In this document: piece after piece, positions 39,001 to 46,035 of the stretch
Layout of the letters: each line of letters opens with the position of its first letter
Numbering within the stretch: position 1 is the stretch's first letter
NCBI RefSeq assembly: GCF_001887775.1
Contig: NZ_CP015519.1
Coordinates: forward strand, 806,001 to 870,000
Direction of reading: 5' to 3'
Origin: Syntrophotalea acetylenivorans
GTDB lineage: Bacteria > Desulfobacterota > Desulfuromonadia > Desulfuromonadales > Syntrophotaleaceae
Length of the DNA stretch: 64,000 nucleotides
Translations under genes and position numbers: made by a program
The notes under the pieces: generated by a model
Databases searched by the model: none
What the model was told of the DNA's origin: nothing
Seen by the model: only the letters and a program-made list of their open reading frames with translations

Positions 39001-39363
39001 TTATTCATCTTCATCGATACCTAAGCTTTTTACTATGTCATTTAGCTCGTCACGATCAAACTTGGCAAGCCTATCCGTCAACCTATTGTATTGAGTTCTA
39101 GTCCATTTCCCCCCTTGCCTTGCCTCGATCCCCATCCTGTTTAACTCTTGAACAACTTCTCCCACGCTATTGTACCCAGCTTTATAAATATCTTTAAGTG
39201 GTTTAAGCATCTGCAATGCAAACCGATCGGCCTTTTCCTGCCTAGCCTTGTTTGCATTGGTTAAGTCGGAATTACGTGACACCTCGAGGGTCGGATTACC
39301 AAGCTTCACGCCTTTCTGCCTTGCCCTCTCTAAACCCTCCTTGATTTTCCTGCTTCTATCCAT
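39001..39363 (-). pseudogene. C-terminal fragment of a serine recombinase
   Basis: The 120-codon frame begins DRSRKIKEGLERARQKGVKLGNP, which is the linker region found just after the catalytic domain of serine recombinases (RTKAALAxAKARGVKLGNP in others). It goes on with a Recombinase-domain-like helical part (GYNSVGEVVQELNRMGIEARQGGKWT). The whole N-terminal catalytic domain with its serine is missing, and no such sequence lies upstream. It is probably a truncated pseudogene, although the ATG could still give a DNA-binding protein. Confidence 0.7.
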
Positions 39364-39840: not shown

Positions 39841-40446
39841 ATGAATAACATTCAAAACAATATCAATCAACTTGAGTCACAGATTAATAAAATGAACAAA
39901 GAAAATATAGAGTACGATGGGGTTAAGCATATATGGCAAAAAATGAAAGAAAAGTCAGCGAGCATAGACTGGATAAATAATTTTGATTATAAATATTTTA
40001 CAACAATAACATTTATCAACGAACAAAAAGAGTCCACTTCTAAGAAACAACTATGTGAAATACTAAAAATGATAAATAAGGATTATTTCAAAAATAGGAA
40101 TAAAAACAAAGAGCATTTTGAGGGTTTTGTGTTTACTGAAAAACAGGCATCTGGAAATATTCACTTCCATATATTGTTTCGTGAAAATATTGTATTTAAT
40201 GCAAAAAGAAATAGAAACAAGGAATTTGAAAGGGTTTTTAAGGAGAAATGTAGATTGATCAGAAATGCGATACCTCTAAAGGATGGAATTGAATATATTG
40301 GAAAAAATACTATCGATCCTGACATTGGAGTGGATGTTCAAGAAGTCTATGACGAGAATATCGTGGAATATTGCATGAAGGATCATCCTCTTTTTAGTAA
40401 AAATATAGATAATGTGGGAATCTTAAATTATGATGGATTCGAATAG
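39841..40446 (+). CDS. HUH endonuclease / replication initiator-like protein
   Basis: The 201-residue protein has the three motifs of rolling-circle Rep proteins in order: motif I FTTITF near residues 53-58, motif II HFHILF at 108-113 (the HUH histidines), and motif III VEYCMK at 175-180 with the catalytic tyrosine 177 and lysine 180. Such proteins nick one DNA strand and bind covalently to it, in plasmids, small ssDNA phages or satellites. Length is near the minimum for a nuclease-only Rep, and no helicase domain follows. AAGGAG precedes the ATG. It is strongly AT-rich, suggesting a different source than its neighbours. Confidence 0.65.
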   Translation: MNNIQNNINQLESQINKMNKENIEYDGVKHIWQKMKEKSASIDWINNFDYKYFTTITFINEQKESTSKKQLCEILKMINKDYFKNRNKNKEHFEGFVFTEKQASGNIHFHILFRENIVFNAKRNRNKEFERVFKEKCRLIRNAIPLKDGIEYIGKNTIDPDIGVDVQEVYDENIVEYCMKDHPLFSKNIDNVGILNYDGFE

Positions 40447-40801
40447 ATATTTTCAACATAGACTTATGATTGCGCTAAATTCTTCACGCATCGCGAACTA
40501 CCCACACAAGCCTCAATGAACAAAACAAGAAGAATTGACTGTCCGATAATTCCTTTGGTGAAGTACGAAGCAAGTTGGGACAAAATGTAAGACGGCCCAA
40601 CCTATGCAGAATAGGTTGGGCCGATCATGTTCCGGTGAGCGTGACTTGTGAGACGTCAACAGCATGGATCGCAAGTGTCTAGAAAACCAAGGGCGATTCA
40701 CTGACTCGCTGATGACCTGTCGCTCATTCTCTAGGTACTTAGGCAGAGCCTTTATATTTAAAACCCATACGTAAGCTGTAATAGCACACAAGTAGATTTG
40801 A
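40447..40801. other. Region downstream of the ubiquitin-like operon, with hairpin
   Basis: No gene is supported. An open minus-strand frame crosses it but is a shadow. It holds the hairpin at 40593-40623 and a segment shared with 36108-36135. Confidence 0.5.
40593..40623 (-). terminator. Strong hairpin, possible operon terminator or mobile-element end
   Basis: CGGCCCAACCTAT and ATAGGTTGGGCCG form a 13-bp perfect stem with a GCAGA loop. No T-run follows directly on either strand, so termination is not certain. The flank reads, on the minus strand, CACCGGAACATGATCGGCCC, which recurs in altered form at 36112. Confidence 0.5.
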
Positions 40802-41074
40802 TTATTTAAGGTTCTTCCACTTTCTAATGGATTGTGGTTTTTCTCTTGTGTCTGGGGATTCTTCTTGGCAATCGGGACCAGTGTGTTTTGTTTTGAGATA
40901 TTTAAAATAGCGTAAGCCGGTTCCAGGAAGCCCAAACGAAGCCCATCTTCTGCCATTTGGCGACACTCCAAAACGCAACCCAAGTGCCCCCCATGACCAA
41001 CCGACTCCCCTGCCTGATAGATTCGCATTTAAACCACCAAACAAACGAATCCTTCTATACCAACGCCAAGCCAT
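40802..41074 (-). CDS. DUF4236 protein, last gene of the ubiquitin-like operon
   Basis: The 90-residue protein has the DUF4236 pattern at its N-terminus: an aromatic/basic start (MAWRWYRRIRLFGGL), LSGRGVGWSWG, LRFGVSPNGRR and the conserved FGLPGTGLRY. The function of this family is unknown; members are common in accessory regions. The ATG at 41074 lies inside the 3' end of the JAB gene (20-bp overlap), so it is coupled to the operon. The C-terminal 35 residues are polar and not conserved. Its place in the operon suggests a role with the conjugation system, as substrate, effector or adaptor. That is inference. Confidence 0.8.
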   Translation of the reverse strand: MAWRWYRRIRLFGGLNANLSGRGVGWSWGALGLRFGVSPNGRRWASFGLPGTGLRYFKYLKTKHTGPDCQEESPDTREKPQSIRKWKNLK

Positions 41075-41624
41075 CAATCGTCCTTAAAATATTGTCAGCA
41101 GACAGTTCGACAGATTCGCTCCCTCTAAACCAACGCTCCTCTTTTCTGATAGGGTCAACAACTAAGCCAAGGCTGTAGCTATTAGTAAAAAAGTTTTTTT
41201 GAGTACTTCTGTCTGTTCCACTAAAAAAAGCTCCTAAATTTGGGTGGCTATGGTACCAACCAACGACGAAATTCGTAGCGTCCCCATGTATATTTGCATC
41301 CTGCCACACATTAGCGTCCATACTTAAAGACACGCATGAGGATTTAAATGTTTGGCTTGGTACGGCTTGCGTGATTTTAATAGCAACAATTCCATCAATA
41401 AGGTCTTTATTGCTAATTACGTTTCCCAATAGTAAACCACCAAGCTCAACATTTTTTGTAGATAGATGCTCCGAGATGGCTTTGCGAACCAGGCCGCCAA
41501 AGAGGACGATTGGCTCATGTTGGGTAAAATTTAATAGCTCAAGGACATCAAATGCCGACCAGTTTGAAGCTATTGAACCTAAAGACAGAGCCCTAATATC
41601 AGATCTTACATTGTTCCACTTCAT
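41055..41624 (-). CDS. JAB/JAMM-family metalloprotease (ubiquitin-like deconjugase)
   Basis: The 189-residue protein has a full JAMM zinc site: Glu61 in VELGGLLLG and the HSHPNLGAFFSGTD motif (HxHP, six residues, S, two, D) near residues 124-137, so it should be catalytic. JAMM proteases cut isopeptide bonds behind ubiquitin-like C-terminal glycines. The Ubl in this operon already ends in glycine, so maturation cleavage is not needed. Removal of Ubl from targets is the better guess. The start overlaps the E2 stop in ATGA. Order E1-Ubl-E2-JAB agrees with bacterial Ub-like systems such as Bil. Confidence 0.93.
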   Translation of the reverse strand: MKWNNVRSDIRALSLGSIASNWSAFDVLELLNFTQHEPIVLFGGLVRKAISEHLSTKNVELGGLLLGNVISNKDLIDGIVAIKITQAVPSQTFKSSCVSLSMDANVWQDANIHGDATNFVVGWYHSHPNLGAFFSGTDRSTQKNFFTNSYSLGLVVDPIRKEERWFRGSESVELSADNILRTIDGLALV

Positions 41625-42259
41625 GTTCTTATAAAGAATTTTTCGTTACATTTAGGACAAAAAACATTGCCACTTTTCCCAACAGGAACCCGAAGTGAAG
41701 CGTTACATTTAGGACAAGAAACTAAAGTCCTCTCTTCCCCTCCTCCCTCAACATTTTTCCAAGACATTGTCGTTTTTTTAGTCTCCCGGACGACTAATTT
41801 GTCTGTGGGGAAAGCATTAGGGTTTTTGCTTATGGCTCCCCTGTACCAGCGTAAAGCATCACTATTTGCAGGAGATTTTTCGTTCAATATTGTCTCATCA
41901 AATGTGATGATTTGAATAATTCTCTTTGTTAGCAAGTCTAGCCCTTGCGTAGGAAGCCATTTTGTACCAAAACAGATTTTCCCAGAGGTATAAACATTAG
42001 GATGATAAATAGGCGTTATAATTGTAGCTGTTGGCTCCTGAAAAGGGTAACGACTTAATAGCTCTATCTTGACCTCTGTAGTGTCTTGCACTTTATCCGG
42101 GTAAGCTTTTGATGGCGCAGTTGGGTATTTAATTTCGAGTACTATTTTATTTATAGGGCTACCTTCAGTACTCTTGATTTTAATTCTTCCATCAAGAGAT
42201 TTAGCAAGCTCCTCAATTTTCCTTAAGTCCTGTTTCACTCGTTCAGAAAGTGCGCTCAT
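41621..42259 (-). CDS. E2-like ubiquitin-conjugating enzyme with C-terminal zinc ribbon
   Basis: The 212-residue protein has an E2 (UBC) fold. YPFQEPTATIITP is the core strand region, followed by the HPN motif in YHPNVYTSG. The active cysteine is C96 in GKICFGTKWLP, with the conserved Trp after it, all as in eukaryotic E2s. The C-terminal 40 residues form a zinc ribbon (C182, C185, C201, C204 in CPKC...CPKC), an addition not part of the usual E2 core. The ATG at 42259 follows AGGG. A TTG at 42277 would overlap the Ubl gene by 14 bp and is less likely. It would accept Ubl from the E1 and pass it to a target; no E3 gene is seen. Confidence 0.93.
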   Translation of the reverse strand: MSALSERVKQDLRKIEELAKSLDGRIKIKSTEGSPINKIVLEIKYPTAPSKAYPDKVQDTTEVKIELLSRYPFQEPTATIITPIYHPNVYTSGKICFGTKWLPTQGLDLLTKRIIQIITFDETILNEKSPANSDALRWYRGAISKNPNAFPTDKLVVRETKKTTMSWKNVEGGGEERTLVSCPKCNASLRVPVGKSGNVFCPKCNEKFFIRT

Positions 42260-42263
42260 TGAT

Positions 42264-42515
42264 CTACCCTGCCACAAGAACGGGTTGTACTTCTAAAACA
42301 TCGCCATCTTTTACCCCATACTCGCCAAGTGTTGAATTGGGGGGCAAGGTCTTGCCAGTAGCGGTGTTCACAAGACTATAGTCCGTATCAGTGGGTAGAG
42401 ACCAGTTATCTACAGATGCCTGAATTACGTCTGATCCCGTATTGTCTGTGTCGAGAGCAACTTCTGCCTTTCTAGTCTGGTCTGCTGTTCGTATGATAAT
42501 ATTAACCTCTGGCAT
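42264..42515 (-). CDS. Ubiquitin-like modifier protein (beta-grasp) with free C-terminal glycine
   Basis: The 83-residue protein has the ubiquitin-like beta-grasp pattern: two N-terminal strands (VNIIIRTAD, RKAEVALDT), a helix around SDVIQASVDNW, and the closing strands DYSLVNTATGKTL, STLGEYGVKDGDVLEVQPVL. It ends Val-Ala-Gly with the glycine as last residue, ready for adenylation by the E1 without processing. A single ubiquitin-like domain is present, not a tandem. A strong GGAGG lies six bases before the ATG, and the gene overlaps the E1 end by 14 bp. Sequence identity to ubiquitin itself is low; the call rests on fold pattern plus E1, E2 and JAB neighbours. Confidence 0.9.
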   Translation of the reverse strand: MPEVNIIIRTADQTRKAEVALDTDNTGSDVIQASVDNWSLPTDTDYSLVNTATGKTLPPNSTLGEYGVKDGDVLEVQPVLVAG

Positions 42516-43638
42516 AATAATCCTCCAATTCTATAATTGTGGTTATGTTTCCTGAGTCATAGCGAAGAAACTTACACGGAAATTCGTATCCTTGATAATT
42601 TTTCTTTATTTCAGAAATTGAAAAACTGTCTTTAATAATTACTTCAACAGATTCTTTTTGACATTTATCACACTCTGTGATCGTTGAATCAAATTTAGAT
42701 GCATTTTTAAAAATGATTGTATGAGTACTTAGTTCAGGATCACACTCGATACATCTTTTTGAAACTAAAATAGGGTCACTAGTAATAAAACTACCATTCT
42801 TTAAAGAAACTTTTTCACCAAAGACACTTTCTATTTTTGACCTACTGCTAACAATCGATATGTGTTCTTTAACTGAAGAACATGCTACACAATCATTATT
42901 TTTATCTAAATCGCTTATCATTGATCTTCCGGTAAATGAATCGATTAGAGTCCTTGTAGGCTTAAATTCATCTTTATTCTTCAGAAAGCTAATTGCATGA
43001 GAACATGCAATTGCCCCTGTAATACTTGATGTCAATATTGTTGTTGGAATCTTTTTCTCCACAAAGGAAATCTTTTTCAGCCAGCCACATGAGTATCTCT
43101 TCTGGATTCTTTCATATGCAGTGCTTGGCAGATTGCACTCATAGCACGGCAAAAAATGAATTTCCCTGAATGGAAAAACCTCTATTTGGCAGAATTTACT
43201 ATCTATCCCGGTGTTAATCAGATTTGTTTTAGTAAAAACACATATTTGATTTAATTTTATTCTTGCTTCAAAATTGTCTACACAACACAAAATACAGTCA
43301 TACGTTTTAGCTTGAGAAAGTGAGAGTTTTTCCCAAAAATCACCAACAAAAAACTTAACATCAATATTAGGGTCAAGCTCTTTAATTCGAGATGCACAAA
43401 CCTCCGCCTTGCTTTTACCAACATCACCCTCTCTAAACAAAACACTTCTTGTTAAATTATGAATTTCTATACTGTCAAAATCATATAAATCAATCTTGCC
43501 AACACCAAGCAATGCAAGGTTTTTAGCAACTTCGTTGCCAACAGCTCCACAACCCACTATGGCAAAAGATGAAGACTTCACGTCCTCTTGAGAGAACCAA
43601 TCTATAAGCGAATGTCTTAGATACCTATCTGTGGACAT
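42502..43638 (-). CDS. E1-like ubiquitin-activating enzyme (ThiF family) with extra zinc-binding C-terminus
   Basis: The 378-residue protein carries the adenylation domain: ATP loop GCGAVGNEV at 29-37, acidic DFDSIEIHNLTRS at 53-65 with the arginine finger, and CCVDNFEARI near 118. Zinc ligands are CYEC (165-168) and CVAC (250-253). C184 in RYSCGW, before the PTT...TSSITGAI segment, is placed like the thioester cysteine of E1 enzymes. The last ~120 residues add another CIEC/CDKC pair (296-299, 323-326) and may bind the Ubl or E2. It would adenylate the Ubl C-terminal glycine and pass it to E2 C96. GAGGAAAA precedes the ATG. Confidence 0.95.
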   Translation of the reverse strand: MSTDRYLRHSLIDWFSQEDVKSSSFAIVGCGAVGNEVAKNLALLGVGKIDLYDFDSIEIHNLTRSVLFREGDVGKSKAEVCASRIKELDPNIDVKFFVGDFWEKLSLSQAKTYDCILCCVDNFEARIKLNQICVFTKTNLINTGIDSKFCQIEVFPFREIHFLPCYECNLPSTAYERIQKRYSCGWLKKISFVEKKIPTTILTSSITGAIACSHAISFLKNKDEFKPTRTLIDSFTGRSMISDLDKNNDCVACSSVKEHISIVSSRSKIESVFGEKVSLKNGSFITSDPILVSKRCIECDPELSTHTIIFKNASKFDSTITECDKCQKESVEVIIKDSFSISEIKKNYQGYEFPCKFLRYDSGNITTIIELEDYYARG

Positions 43639-43642
43639 TTGT

Positions 43643-43882
43643 CTATTTTCCTCTTATTTGGGAAACTGCCTCATTCAAGAGCTTTATTACCTCTTCACTA
43701 TATTCGGACATGAAAGCATCCGTCTTGTCTGGATGATATAAAAGGACCTTTTGTCGATATGCTTTTTTAACATCTTCCGTAGATGCCCCCTGGTCTATCC
43801 CAAGCCGTTCGTGGGGAGATTGCTGTTTAATCTTTTCAAGCTGGCTAGAATAGTTTGTTTTTAAATTTTTCCACTTCATCAT
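43643..43882 (-). CDS. J-domain (DnaJ-like) co-chaperone in the ubiquitin-like operon
   Basis: The 79-residue protein is essentially one J domain: HERLGIDQGASTEDVKKAYR, then the HPD motif in LLYHPDKTD, then a final helix. The HPD triad shows it should stimulate DnaK-type Hsp70 ATPase. About 25 residues precede the domain (KNLKTNYSSQLEKIKQQ), perhaps a partner-binding helix. It overlaps the stop of the OB-fold gene in ATGA and ends four bases before the E1 gene. A J protein in a Ubl conjugation operon suggests a link to unfolded or disassembled protein complexes; this is inference. Confidence 0.9.
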   Translation of the reverse strand: MMKWKNLKTNYSSQLEKIKQQSPHERLGIDQGASTEDVKKAYRQKVLLYHPDKTDAFMSEYSEEVIKLLNEAVSQIRGK

Positions 43883-44631
43883 TTAGCACTCAAAATCATC
43901 GACTTTTCAGATACAATAATTTCGTAGCCGAAAGTTTGATGTTTAACAATTAGCCCTCTAACTTTCACAGTTTTTCCATTCAATGTACTTATAAAACGTT
44001 TCCCACCAACACGGCTAATTGCTGTTCTGAAAAATACCAACTTGAATCCCTTGGTCCATGACTTGTCCTCGAACATCACCGCAAAATCGTTCCCTCTACG
44101 ACTTTCTCGAACCTTAACAACCCTACCTTCAAAAGTAACAACTGATCCAACATGCTGCTTGTAATCACTCAAAGTAACGACATTAGGAGTATAATCTCTA
44201 CCTTGTGCTTTTTTCCCACCAGCAAGAGCAACTATATTTGTTGACTGACATGAAACGCACCTTGAATCATTTACTTCACGTAATACCTGCAGACTTTCAG
44301 TGTGATAAAAAACAGTACAAGATTGACATTGATGTAAGCCAAGCGTCCTATCAAGAGGAGCGCCTGTAAATGCGTCATGCAAACCTGAAAGGTCTAGTTT
44401 GGCCAAATCTGTTGTTGTACTGCTTGAGGCAGAGGAATCTCTGAACTTGATATTTGACTTAGCTCTAGATTGCGAGGCAGGACGAAAAGTTTGACTCTCC
44501 TGCCTTTTTCTTACTGTTCTGGGATGGGAAGCAGACGAAGAATTAGTACTTGGTGGCCGATCCTCCCCCTTAAAGGCGTTTATAATAACAACTAAGAGCC
44601 AGATTCCCCCGACAACTAAAAGTACTTCCAC
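43879..44631 (-). CDS. Membrane-anchored zinc-ribbon/OB-fold protein, first gene of the ubiquitin-like operon
   Basis: The protein, about 250 residues, starts with one transmembrane helix (VEVLLVVGGIWLLVVIINAF). A Ser/Arg-rich disordered linker follows to about residue 85. Next is a zinc ribbon (CQSC and CVSC, about residues 100-135). The last ~100 residues have the strand pattern of an OB fold (SVVTFEGRVVKVRE, FAVMFEDK, LNGKTVKVRGLIVKH, YEIIVSE), similar to nucleic-acid or tRNA-anticodon-like OB domains. The GTG at 44631 follows GGAGGGG and is preferred over a TTG four codons earlier. It could tether the conjugation machinery to the membrane while sensing nucleic acid or a protein partner. 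That is a hypothesis. Confidence 0.75.
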   Translation of the reverse strand: MEVLLVVGGIWLLVVIINAFKGEDRPPSTNSSSASHPRTVRKRQESQTFRPASQSRAKSNIKFRDSSASSSTTTDLAKLDLSGLHDAFTGAPLDRTLGLHQCQSCTVFYHTESLQVLREVNDSRCVSCQSTNIVALAGGKKAQGRDYTPNVVTLSDYKQHVGSVVTFEGRVVKVRESRRGNDFAVMFEDKSWTKGFKLVFFRTAISRVGGKRFISTLNGKTVKVRGLIVKHQTFGYEIIVSEKSMILSAK

Positions 44632-44691
44632 CCACCCCTCCAAGCTAAATGTATCTTAATACGCAATCATATCAAGCTGAGAAATCATCGT

Positions 44692-44997
44692 TTAAAAAGG
44701 AGGGACATCAAGAGGTACTTCTCCATTTTCTGACGGAGGATAGCCAAAAATAGCTATCTCCTCTGGGGAAATTTCTTCAGATGCAAAACCTTTAAACTTT
44801 TTAGGCTGTGAAAGGACTTGCATCTGGCTTGCTATAACCTCAGTGATGTGCCTCTTATTTCCATTGCGATCATCATATGACCGTGTTTGCAGCTTTCCTT
44901 CTATGTAAACCTGTGATCCCTTTATTAAATCCTGACTACATATTTCTGCCAGTTTTGACCAAGAGACAACATTATGCCATTCGGTACTCTCTTGCTG
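44692..44997 (-). pseudogene. ssb: 5'-truncated single-stranded DNA-binding protein (ssb) remnant
   Basis: The minus-strand frame reads [18 protein letters not shown], then [18 protein letters not shown] and an ending DVPPF, the C-terminal tip by which SSB recruits partners. This is the SSB OB-fold from about its middle onward plus the full tail. The first ~45 residues are gone: a TAA lies directly before the homology, and no SSB N-terminus is found upstream. It is in the same direction as, and directly upstream of, the ubiquitin-like operon. It could be the scar of an insertion or recombination at a cassette-like junction. Confidence 0.85.
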
Positions 44998-45141: not shown

Positions 45142-46035
45142 TCAATTTTCGGCCAAGGTTGCAGCTTCCCACTCTTTATAGGTTTGCTTTGTGCCCTTTA
45201 CTTTCCAAGCGATTGGGCCCGCAGTAGATCTTCCATTGCATACTGCACCTGCTGCGCTGGTGCTCGGGAATGCGTAACTTTGTGTAAAAACCTTGTGTTT
45301 TCCATGATCAACTAAAATCCCTTGTTCTACAAGCTTGTCGTGGTGCTTCCAATAGTATGACTTTTCGCTTCGATCACCTATGTAAGTTGCTCTAGCTAAA
45401 GAACCCTTCTGAACCACAAATTCACCATCTTCCAGTATCGCCGTAGCAACTATCCCTTCTTTTTTTAAGGTTAGCTCGAAGACAGGGCTTTCTGTTGATT
45501 CTTTGGATTTTTCTATTTCGCTTTGTTTGTCTGGCTTGGCTTTACTTGTGAATAAATCGACTCGTATTGCAGGAAGCACCATTAGCAATTGCGAAATGAA
45601 TGCTTCCATATTCGCTTGCGCTGCCTCTGAAAGACTCGGAAGGGATGGATTCGTGCCGTTTTCCAACTTTGTGTTGGCAGCAGATATTCCTTCTTGAACA
45701 AGCCGCGACTCAAGATATTGCACATGAGCCTTATGTAGGTTATTGGCGGCGGATGTAATCAGAATAATCCTAGTCCACCAGTCCTTTTTTGCATCGTGGC
45801 TTTTAATTCTGGCAGCAATGCTCTCACCTTCACCAATATACGCCAGTGGATCCTCATTTAGTTCACCGAGAAGGATATACACCCCAGTGTATGAGCTTTC
45901 TTTTCGCTTCAAAGCTTCAGGTAGCCGCGTCCTTGGCGCAACGAGAATATGCCCCGTCCAACCGAAAACTTCCGCAGTAAGCATGCCATCTGGTTTTCCA
46001 TCGATAAAAAATAGTTCTAGTGTGGTTGCGCTCAA
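45142..46035 (-). CDS. GIY-YIG nuclease-family protein with DUF4357 domain
   Basis: The 297-residue protein has a GIY-YIG-type domain at about 45-140 (TGVYILLG, then AYIGEGESIAARI, then DWWTRIILIT and YLESRLVQEG). A DUF4357 domain follows at about 215-290, with LARATYIGDRSEKSYYWKHHDKLVEQGIL. Proteins of this build are common in prokaryotic mobile regions and their biological role is open, possibly nuclease-based defence. The start is TTG at 46035 with GAGGCAAAATA before it. The attC-like site just after its stop marks it as a gene cassette in the reverse direction to the others. Confidence 0.88.
   Translation of the reverse strand: MSATTLELFFIDGKPDGMLTAEVFGWTGHILVAPRTRLPEALKRKESSYTGVYILLGELNEDPLAYIGEGESIAARIKSHDAKKDWWTRIILITSAANNLHKAHVQYLESRLVQEGISAANTKLENGTNPSLPSLSEAAQANMEAFISQLLMVLPAIRVDLFTSKAKPDKQSEIEKSKESTESPVFELTLKKEGIVATAILEDGEFVVQKGSLARATYIGDRSEKSYYWKHHDKLVEQGILVDHGKHKVFTQSYAFPSTSAAGAVCNGRSTAGPIAWKVKGTKQTYKEWEAATLAEN

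What the first reader, a model, noticed from the sequence alone, without database searches (positions are those of the whole stretch)
43643..43882. J-domain protein inside a Ubl conjugation operon
A single J domain with intact HPD overlaps the OB gene (ATGA) and nearly touches the E1. Known J proteins bring clients to DnaK. Combined with E1/E2/JAB this suggests chaperone-guided modification or removal of unfolded or assembling proteins, an idea resembling eukaryotic quality control. The function is inference.
Basis: partly seen in the sequence, partly recalled or inferred. Interest (0 to 1): 0.7.

Follow-up and report, generated by a model that had tools for sequence, protein, structure and literature searches.

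The report
Chaperone-linked bacterial ubiquitin-like conjugation operon
A small protein that can call on the cell's main folding machine (DnaK) is a conserved part of a bacterial ubiquitin-like tagging operon and carries the same short tryptophan motif as the operon's other enzymes, which suggests that some bacteria couple protein folding to protein tagging, possibly in virus defence.

Summary
Confirmed: 43643-43882 (-) is a 79-aa J-domain gene (Pfam DnaJ 6.2e-11, HPD intact), overlapping the upstream gene by ATGA and ending 4 nt before the E1. The order RING/OB-J-E1-Ubl-E2-JAB recurs in Pseudomonadota, Thermodesulfobacteriota, Verrucomicrobiota and a prophage: J is in 12 of 16 members of this E1 clade, but in only 2 of 69 more distant E1 loci (apparently separate gains). 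Found here: (1) the "OB gene" is an anchored RING/U-box-like module plus a nucleic-acid-type OB fold, an E3 candidate; (2) a motif learned from E2 tails (Phi-x-W-x-[DEN]-Phi) recurs at the J N-terminus (W in 13 of 13) and JAB N-terminus (16 of 16); its wider enrichment weakens when families are collapsed; (3) the Ubl is the most conserved part and has VLVAG in 17 of 17; (4) several members lie beside Qat, Kwa-like or R-M genes or in a P22-like prophage. Best reading: J is a tagged adaptor that brings DnaK to the conjugation machinery so that chaperone-held, perhaps phage, proteins are modified. That J belongs to the system is well supported; client delivery, the motif's partner and defence are inference. 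Known kind of system, new chaperone-linked variant.

The parts
43643..43882 (-). J-domain protein, 79 aa: N-terminal W motif (MMKWKNL), linker, J domain with HPD; no G/F region, zinc domain or client-binding domain
   Evidence: PF00226 6.2e-11; W and HPD invariant in 13 of 13
43879..44643 (-). Likely start GTG 44631. E3 candidate
   Evidence: AF2 model pLDDT 75; OB Z 11.3; RING-like: hhalign 97.5%, E 7.5e-12 to cyanobacterial RING-like proteins, fold matches
42502..43638 (-). E1: one ThiF domain, Cys184 invariant, C-terminal zinc-binding part
   Evidence: PF00899 3.8e-47; C184 in 17 of 17 clade E1s
42264..42515 (-). YukD-like ubiquitin-like protein, 83 aa, C-terminus VLVAG
   Evidence: PF08817 4.6e-6; VLVAG in 17 of 17, residues beyond the G in 4 of 17
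41621..42277 (-). E2 with HPN and Cys102, then W motif (TMSWKNV) and C-terminal zinc ribbon
   Evidence: PF00179 3.7e-11; HPN-Cys in 13 of 15, NPN-Cys in 2 of 15
41055..41624 (-). JAB/JAMM isopeptidase, W motif at its N-terminus (MKWNNV)
   Evidence: PF14464 2.3e-8, PF01398 4e-8; E/H/H/S/D residues in 16 of 16, N-terminal W in 16 of 16
40802..41077 (-). DUF4236 protein overlapping the JAB end; C-terminus RKWKNLK, like the J N-terminus
   Evidence: PF14020 4.9e-14; homologues after JAB in L126 and L050 only, of 16 other clade loci searched; PSSM score 6.2, below the threshold used
40593..40623 (-). Terminator-like hairpin (13 pairs) after DUF4236, probable operon end
   Evidence: 4 such sites found against 3.5 expected in shuffles
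44648..44675 (-). Promoter-like TTGATA-16-TACATT just upstream of the RING/OB gene
   Evidence: no more such sites in the region than chance (9 against 10.6)

Best explanation
The J protein is a dedicated adaptor of a ubiquitin-like conjugation system. Its N-terminal W motif docks it onto a shared hub of the system, most likely the Ubl itself, and its J domain recruits and activates host DnaK there. DnaK then presents non-native or assembling proteins, by context perhaps those of an infecting phage, to the membrane-anchored RING/U-box-like E3 candidate and the E2, which attach the Ubl through its C-terminal glycine; JAB trims the Ubl precursor and can reverse the mark. Shown by sequence: the operon, intact active-site residues, conserved order, motif, folds. 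Inferred: DnaK recruitment (from J-domain biology), the motif's partner, E3 activity, the clients, and the defence role.
For: J domain with invariant HPD. RING/OB-J-E1-Ubl-E2-JAB order in 11 loci besides the window (L041, L042, L043, L045, L048, L050-L053, L120, L126), with L040 cut off in E2 by its contig end. J in 12 of 16 of the clade, lost with the RING/OB gene in one nested subclade, gained apart in L097 and L035. A PSSM trained only on E2 tails gives p <= 0.015 at the N-terminus of each of 12 clade J proteins and of the L097 J, against 468 background N-termini, and p <= 0.02 at the JAB N-terminus in 26 of 35 W-group loci. In the window, J (11.7) and JAB (15.3) score above 9, as does 1 of 47 other ORFs. 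The Ubl, the obvious common partner, is the most conserved component: mean identity 70% against 47-56%. E3 candidate. Ubl residues beyond the G in 4 of 17 fit JAB processing. Defence context: QatA/C/D beside L050, KwaB-like and integrase beside L045, type I restriction enzyme and PDC-S28 beside L043, type II R-M and P22-like portal beside L120, PDC-S14 beside the window operon.
Against: No experiment. J is missing from 67 of 69 more distant E1 loci and from 4 of 16 clade members, so the core works without it. The J of L035 lacks the motif (p 0.29). Motif enrichment in neighbouring genes is strong raw (35 of 135 against 9 of 212; same-strand runs 30 of 80 against 8 of 235) but weak with one protein per family (median p 0.10; median 0.028, highest 0.21), and a column-permuted PSSM reached a larger excess in at least one of 200 trials. 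The 12 clade J proteins are related, so their p-values are not independent. The window RING/OB protein scores low (2.6) and DUF4236 6.2. E2 tails of L042 and L043 lack the W. The RING-like fold matches are weak (best Foldseek E 0.076, best Z 6.3). The defence context has no random control and was tested on proteins I chose; L126 lies among housekeeping-looking genes with one HNH gene.
Confidence: 0.42

Rival explanations
1. Disassembly, not delivery: J recruits DnaK to proteins that already carry the Ubl, through the Ubl-binding motif, and DnaK pulls these assemblies apart, after which JAB recycles the Ubl.
For: The motif is as constant on JAB (16 of 16) as on J (13 of 13); J has no client-binding domain of its own; adaptor-type J proteins that send Hsp70 to one assembly are established (auxilin, recalled).
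Against: J is coupled to the RING/OB gene and the E1, not to JAB, and in one subclade J was lost with the RING/OB gene while JAB stayed.
Confidence: 0.2
2. Assembly factor: J brings DnaK to help fold or mature the operon's own zinc-rich E1, E2 and RING/OB proteins.
For: Translational coupling of J to the RING/OB gene; in Pseudomonadota the E2 zinc ribbon is present where J is and absent where J and RING/OB are absent.
Against: L051, L052 and L053 have J without the E2 zinc ribbon; most E1/E2/JAB operons examined have no J.
Confidence: 0.15
3. Bait or sensor: phages use host DnaJ/DnaK, and J is a look-alike that captures phage proteins bound for the chaperone and so triggers conjugation.
For: Defence and prophage surroundings; phage use of DnaJ/DnaK is recalled from lambda biology.
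Against: No phage link of J itself was tested; all 13 J proteins keep the HPD that a passive bait would not need.
Confidence: 0.13
4. Hitch-hiker: J sits beside the E1 without working with it.
For: J is rare outside the clade: 2 of 69.
Against: Place, overlap, HPD and motif are kept across three phyla and a prophage; no J match elsewhere in the loci.
Confidence: 0.03

Closest known systems
Prokaryotic Ubl/E1/E2/JAB systems with RING-type E3 (Iyer 2006; Burroughs, Iyer and Aravind 2011)
   Same: E1, E2, beta-grasp Ubl, JAB and RING-like protein in one operon. PMC7159879 (passages) describes operons with JAB, E1, prokaryotic RING-type E3 and a Ubl-E2 protein and cites the 2011 paper.
   Different: I found no mention of J or DnaJ with such operons in the passages seen (PMC1779556: 0 occurrences of DnaJ). 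The RING-like module here is a one-zinc variant fused to an OB fold. The 2011 paper itself was not held; its YukD-RING proposal is recalled.
Bil (bacterial ISG15-like) anti-phage system
   Same: Ubl, E1, E2 and JAB in one operon.
   Different: BilA has two ubiquitin-like domains and the Bil E1 has an inactive plus an active adenylation domain (PMC11354881, passages); here one 83-aa Ubl and one ThiF domain.
Bub (bacterial ubiquitination-like) operons
   Same: Ubl conjugation operon, suspected immune or stress role (PMC13373217, passages).
   Different: Could not be compared gene by gene: the defining papers are not held.
DnaJ-containing bacterial conflict systems (GAP1-N2 GTPase systems)
   Same: A DnaJ domain in a conflict operon (PMC7159879, passages).
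   Different: Those carry their own HSP70 and GrpE and, in the passage seen, no Ubl enzymes.
CHIP (eukaryotic U-box E3 bound to Hsp70)
   Same: Works-like comparison only: a U-box-like protein tied to the Hsp70 machine (recalled).
   Different: Link through a J protein instead of TPR repeats; no homology claimed.
LIR/AIM (Atg8-binding WxxL) and SIM (SUMO-binding) motifs
   Same: Short aromatic or hydrophobic beta-type motif on E2, protease and adaptors of one Ubl system (recalled).
   Different: Binding to the Ubl is not shown here.

Membership tests
Prokaryotic Ubl conjugation system (E1/E2/Ubl/JAB) | ThiF-type E1 with nucleotide-binding residues and a conserved cysteine | tested here: met
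   PF00899 3.8e-47; Cys184 in 17 of 17
Prokaryotic Ubl conjugation system (E1/E2/Ubl/JAB) | UBC-fold E2 with catalytic cysteine | tested here: met
   PF00179 3.7e-11; Cys102 in 15 of 15, HPN in 13 of 15
Prokaryotic Ubl conjugation system (E1/E2/Ubl/JAB) | Beta-grasp Ubl with terminal glycine | tested here: met
   PF08817 4.6e-6, just above its cut-off; VLVAG in 17 of 17
Prokaryotic Ubl conjugation system (E1/E2/Ubl/JAB) | JAMM metalloprotease residues | tested here: met
   16 of 16
Prokaryotic Ubl conjugation system (E1/E2/Ubl/JAB) | Covalent protein conjugation | not testable with these tools
   needs biochemistry
RING/U-box E3 | RING sequence and zinc pattern | tested here: inconclusive
   No Pfam RING match in the window protein at E 0.1; L081 homologue PF14446 E 0.014, below the cut-off; hhalign to cyanobacterial RING-like proteins 97.5%, E 7.5e-12; one CxxC/H/CxxC site only
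RING/U-box E3 | RING/U-box fold | tested here: inconclusive
   Many RING/U-box chains among the best matches, but Foldseek E >= 0.076 and Z <= 6.3
J-domain protein (class C type) | J domain with HPD, without other DnaJ domains | tested here: met
Bil | Ubl with two ubiquitin-like domains; E1 with inactive plus active adenylation domains | tested here: not met
   83-aa single-domain Ubl, 378-aa E1 with one ThiF match; definition from PMC11354881 passages
Type II CBASS / 6A-type E1-E2 fusion | E2 and E1 in one polypeptide | tested here: not met
   separate genes
Bub | Bub gene content and E2 type | not tested
   defining papers not held
Anti-phage defence system | Protection against phage | not testable with these tools
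   only gene neighbourhood seen

The most novel reading that the evidence does not exclude
These bacterial systems use a short aromatic motif, Phi-x-[W/F]-x-[DEN], as a system-wide tag that binds the Ubl, as LIR/AIM binds Atg8 or SIM binds SUMO. The tag is W-type in the proteobacterial/cyanobacterial half of the E1 tree and F-type in planctomycetes, and is carried by E2 tails, JAB N-termini, RING-like proteins and other accessory proteins. The J protein is the adaptor that plugs Hsp70 into this hub: a bacterial counterpart of chaperone-guided ubiquitination.
Probability: 0.33. Interest if true: 0.86.

Novelty: new variant of a known kind. Interest (0 to 1): 0.62.

Why it matters
If right, Hsp70-coupled protein modification with an E1-E2-RING-like-JAB cascade, often treated as a eukaryotic feature, exists in a seven-gene operon that fits on one plasmid. 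It gives a compact, testable model of how a chaperone chooses targets for a ubiquitin-like mark, offers a candidate rule (a W tag) for which genes belong to such systems, and points to a possible chaperone-based route of phage defence.

Tried and rejected
Module swap between E2 and RING/OB: in L052/L053 the E2 lacks the zinc ribbon and the RING/OB protein has an N-terminal CxxC pair. An HMM of the E2 zinc ribbon gave only E 6.9 and 25 there, so homology is not supported and the idea is dropped.

J and E2 zinc ribbon as a strict pair: rejected, because L051-L053 have J without the ribbon.

Family-wide J: rejected, since 67 of 69 E1 loci outside the clade show no J. Some of these loci are short contigs, so a few J genes could be missed.

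Motif enrichment in all neighbouring genes: strong raw, not robust when families are collapsed, and not clearly above column-permuted PSSMs. Some raw hits lie inside RING-like domains (for example QDSWQEI, L104). I rest the claim on J, E2 and JAB, not on this test.

A WVEV motif at the start of the RING/OB gene: dropped, because the likely start is GTG 44631, behind it.

Searches with no result: E1 and E2 single-protein scans of viral contigs, RING/OB in phages, J in plasmids, RING/OB profile in PDB sequences. The E1 search in phages gave 16 records, and the ten listed looked like MoeB/ThiF-type or unannotated partial matches.

The genome scan returned the best 80 of 418 E1-encoding loci, so 338 were not examined. 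The E1 tree has long branches, L097 and L035 among them, so 'separate gains' is the parsimonious reading, not proof. In one search, L051 was left out of the RING/OB set (its frame ends before the OB part) and is absent from the E2 set; L040 has no complete E2 or JAB. The identity means leave out L044, L046, L047, L048, L049, L051 and L053.

Neighbour proteins for the defence check were chosen by me (19 proteins, plus 10 window proteins); no random control was run.

Full report
The observation. The minus-strand ORF 43643-43882 encodes 79 aa with a J domain (PF00226, E 6.2e-11, 42.7 bits, cut-off 27.8). It overlaps the upstream gene by ATGA and ends 4 nt before the E1 start. The host has at least two other J proteins, 35 and 42% identical over the matched part, so this one is extra. 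The operon reads, 5' to 3' on the minus strand, RING/OB, J, E1, Ubl, E2, JAB and DUF4236, with a 13-pair terminator-like hairpin after DUF4236 and a promoter-like site before RING/OB (neither kind is more frequent than in shuffles). Active-site residues are intact: E1 Cys184 in 17 of 17, E2 Cys102 in 15 of 15, JAMM residues in 16 of 16, Ubl VLVAG in 17 of 17. In 4 of 17 the Ubl has residues beyond that glycine, which fits processing by JAB (inference).

Distribution. A scan of genome contigs with a three-sequence E1 alignment gave 418 E1-encoding loci, of which the best 80 were kept; a viral scan gave two. With local HMMs and an E1 tree of 85 rows, the window lies in a clade of 16 (100/100) in which 12 have J. 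The four without J (Porticoccaceae and a Cellvibrionales MAG) are nested inside (96/88) and also lack the RING/OB gene; a search of those four whole genomes found no RING/OB protein (7 of the 12 genomes searched had one). Outside the clade 2 of 69 rows have J: L097 (Acidobacteriales, J directly before E1) and L035, where a J with zinc ribbon and hydrophobic segment follows the E2 in a larger operon with FHA, RING, AAA and subtilase genes. The tree needs at least 4 changes for J, against 13.3 in shuffles. A later search of 196 genomes of one genus (L045's) found the RING/OB protein in 4, three full-length and one module-only; one of the three, G640, was new and carries the full operon with J. 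Counting it, J is in 13 of 17, but that locus was found through RING/OB and so is not an unbiased addition. The operon is sporadic: none of 57 relatives of the host has a close E1 (best E 3.8e-18 against 7.4e-257 for itself), and of 395 genomes of the phylum 12 match the E2, all but the host weakly.

The upstream gene. The AlphaFold2 model (pLDDT 75) shows an N-terminal helix, a disordered stretch (28-79), a compact module (about 84-140) and a beta domain. The last is an OB fold of the nucleic-acid-binding type: Z 11.3, 2.1 A over 89 residues to the anticodon-binding domain of Thermus AsnRS, with RPA, CST and PolC OB folds near Z 9. The middle module is RING-like. It matches cyanobacterial proteins that follow JAB in related operons (hhalign 97.5%, E 7.5e-12 over 56 columns). 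The Pfam family Prok-RING_1 is hit clearly by the RING of L035 (1.4e-8) and only weakly by L081 (0.014) and L115 (0.066). A model of the module alone (pLDDT 86) has Ring1b/Bmi1, TRIM69, RNF4 and the Prp19 U-box among its best structural neighbours, but none is significant alone (best E 0.076, best Z 6.3). One zinc site remains (C106, C109, H114, C129, C132 in 12 of 12, L051 left out). I call it a RING/U-box-like E3 candidate. That the N-terminal helix is a membrane anchor is my reading of its hydrophobic sequence; no membrane predictor was run.

The tag. Thirty-four of 58 stand-alone E2s have a W in the tail behind the UBC core. A PSSM trained on those tails alone (28 distinct 7-mers) was applied to other proteins. 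Each of the 12 clade J proteins has a match in its first 30 residues at p <= 0.015 against 468 background N-termini, and so has the J of L097; the J of L035 does not (0.29). JAB N-termini match at p <= 0.02 in 26 of 35 W-group loci. The W is invariant in J (13 of 13) and in the clade JABs (16 of 16), and present in 13 of 15 clade E2s. In the window, J and JAB score 11.7 and 15.3, while 1 of 47 other ORFs reaches 9. RING/OB linkers carry a phenylalanine at the like place (F67 in 12 of 12) but score low. Planctomycete E2 tails end in forms such as VVFID and ITFIE, and their JAB N-termini carry forms such as EIVFDDV, which I read, without a test, as an F-type of the same motif. Against this, the broad enrichment in neighbouring genes (35 of 135 against 9 of 212; 30 of 80 against 8 of 235) shrinks with one protein per family (median p 0.10; 0.028), and column-permuted PSSMs did as well in at least one of 200 trials.

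Mechanism. The J protein has a tag, a linker and a J domain, and nothing that would bind clients. Established J-domain biology says that HPD-bearing J domains stimulate Hsp70 and that the rest of the protein decides where. Here the rest is the tag. Its partner must be common to E2, JAB and J and was scored as untagged itself, so Ubl or E1. The Ubl is the most conserved component (mean identity 70% against 47-56% for the others), as expected of a hub, so I favour the Ubl. J would then bring DnaK to the Ubl machinery, next to the RING/U-box-like protein with which it is co-translated, and DnaK-held proteins would be marked. The opposite direction, DnaK dismantling marked assemblies, is the strongest rival. 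The surroundings suggest conflict with phages: QatA, QatC and QatD genes beside L050, a KwaB-like gene and an integrase beside L045, a type I restriction enzyme and PDC-S28 beside L043, a type II R-M pair and a P22-like portal beside L120, and PDC-S14 beside the window operon. L126 shows only an HNH gene among housekeeping-looking genes, and no random control was run.

Comparison with what is known. Ubl/E1/E2/JAB operons were predicted in 2006 (PMC1779556, passages; no occurrence of DnaJ), and RING-containing ones are described in PMC7159879 (passages), which also mentions a DnaJ domain in an unrelated GTPase conflict system. Bil differs in its two-domain Ubl and its E1 (PMC11354881, passages). 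Bub could not be compared (PMC13373217 and PMC12687455 read as passages only; the defining papers were not held). Seven paper searches (listings seen) showed no paper that by title or abstract describes a J protein in such an operon; the 2011 RING paper and the Bil and Bub primary papers were not available, so a mention there is possible. The verdict is a new variant of a known kind.

Noticed in passing
window 40802-41077 (-), L126 5084-5374 (-), L050 12558-12791 (+): DUF4236 gene overlapping or following JAB. In the window and L126 its C-terminus ends in a W motif (RKWKNLK, IRWNDLK); in L050 it does not.
   Followed up: partly
L020 5953-6165, L021 5956-6156, L125 1465-1677: Stand-alone 66-70 aa copies of the RING-like module with an F-type motif at the N-terminus, on Vibrio and Teredinibacter plasmids and in one genome of the Vibrio set; they could be decoys or regulators of the system.
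   Followed up: partly
L035 2904-14595: Large operon in the window's phylum: Ubl, E1, JAB, FHA, Prok-RING_1 protein, E2, J with zinc ribbon, AAA ATPase and subtilase, with a trypsin-like gene upstream (by reading): here a protease is present.
   Followed up: partly
E2 C-terminal tails of L059-L116: E2 tails are lineage-specific: W motif in cyanobacteria and the window clade, DDxGINIL-type ends in Chloroflexi, acidic-Phi-x-F ends in planctomycetes.
   Followed up: partly
L019 9489-11219 and homologues in L054, L057, L060, L063, L084: A T4SS-coupling-protein-like ATPase directly after JAB in cyanobacterial operons; all six members score 9 or more for the W motif, five of them near the C-terminus.
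   Followed up: no
window 44692-44976 (-): An SSB-like coding stretch without its start, directly upstream of the operon (the name is recalled, not searched).
   Followed up: no
window 45142-46035 (-): DUF4357/GIY-YIG-like gene matching the candidate defence family PDC-S14 at 2.3e-111.
   Followed up: no
window 39001-39363 (-) and 39841-40446 (+): A recombinase-like helix-turn-helix fragment and a replication-associated ORF2/G2P-like gene next to the operon: signs of mobility.
   Followed up: no
L120 1069-13506: The six-gene operon lies in a P22-like prophage region between a UmuC-type gene and a type II R-M pair.
   Followed up: partly
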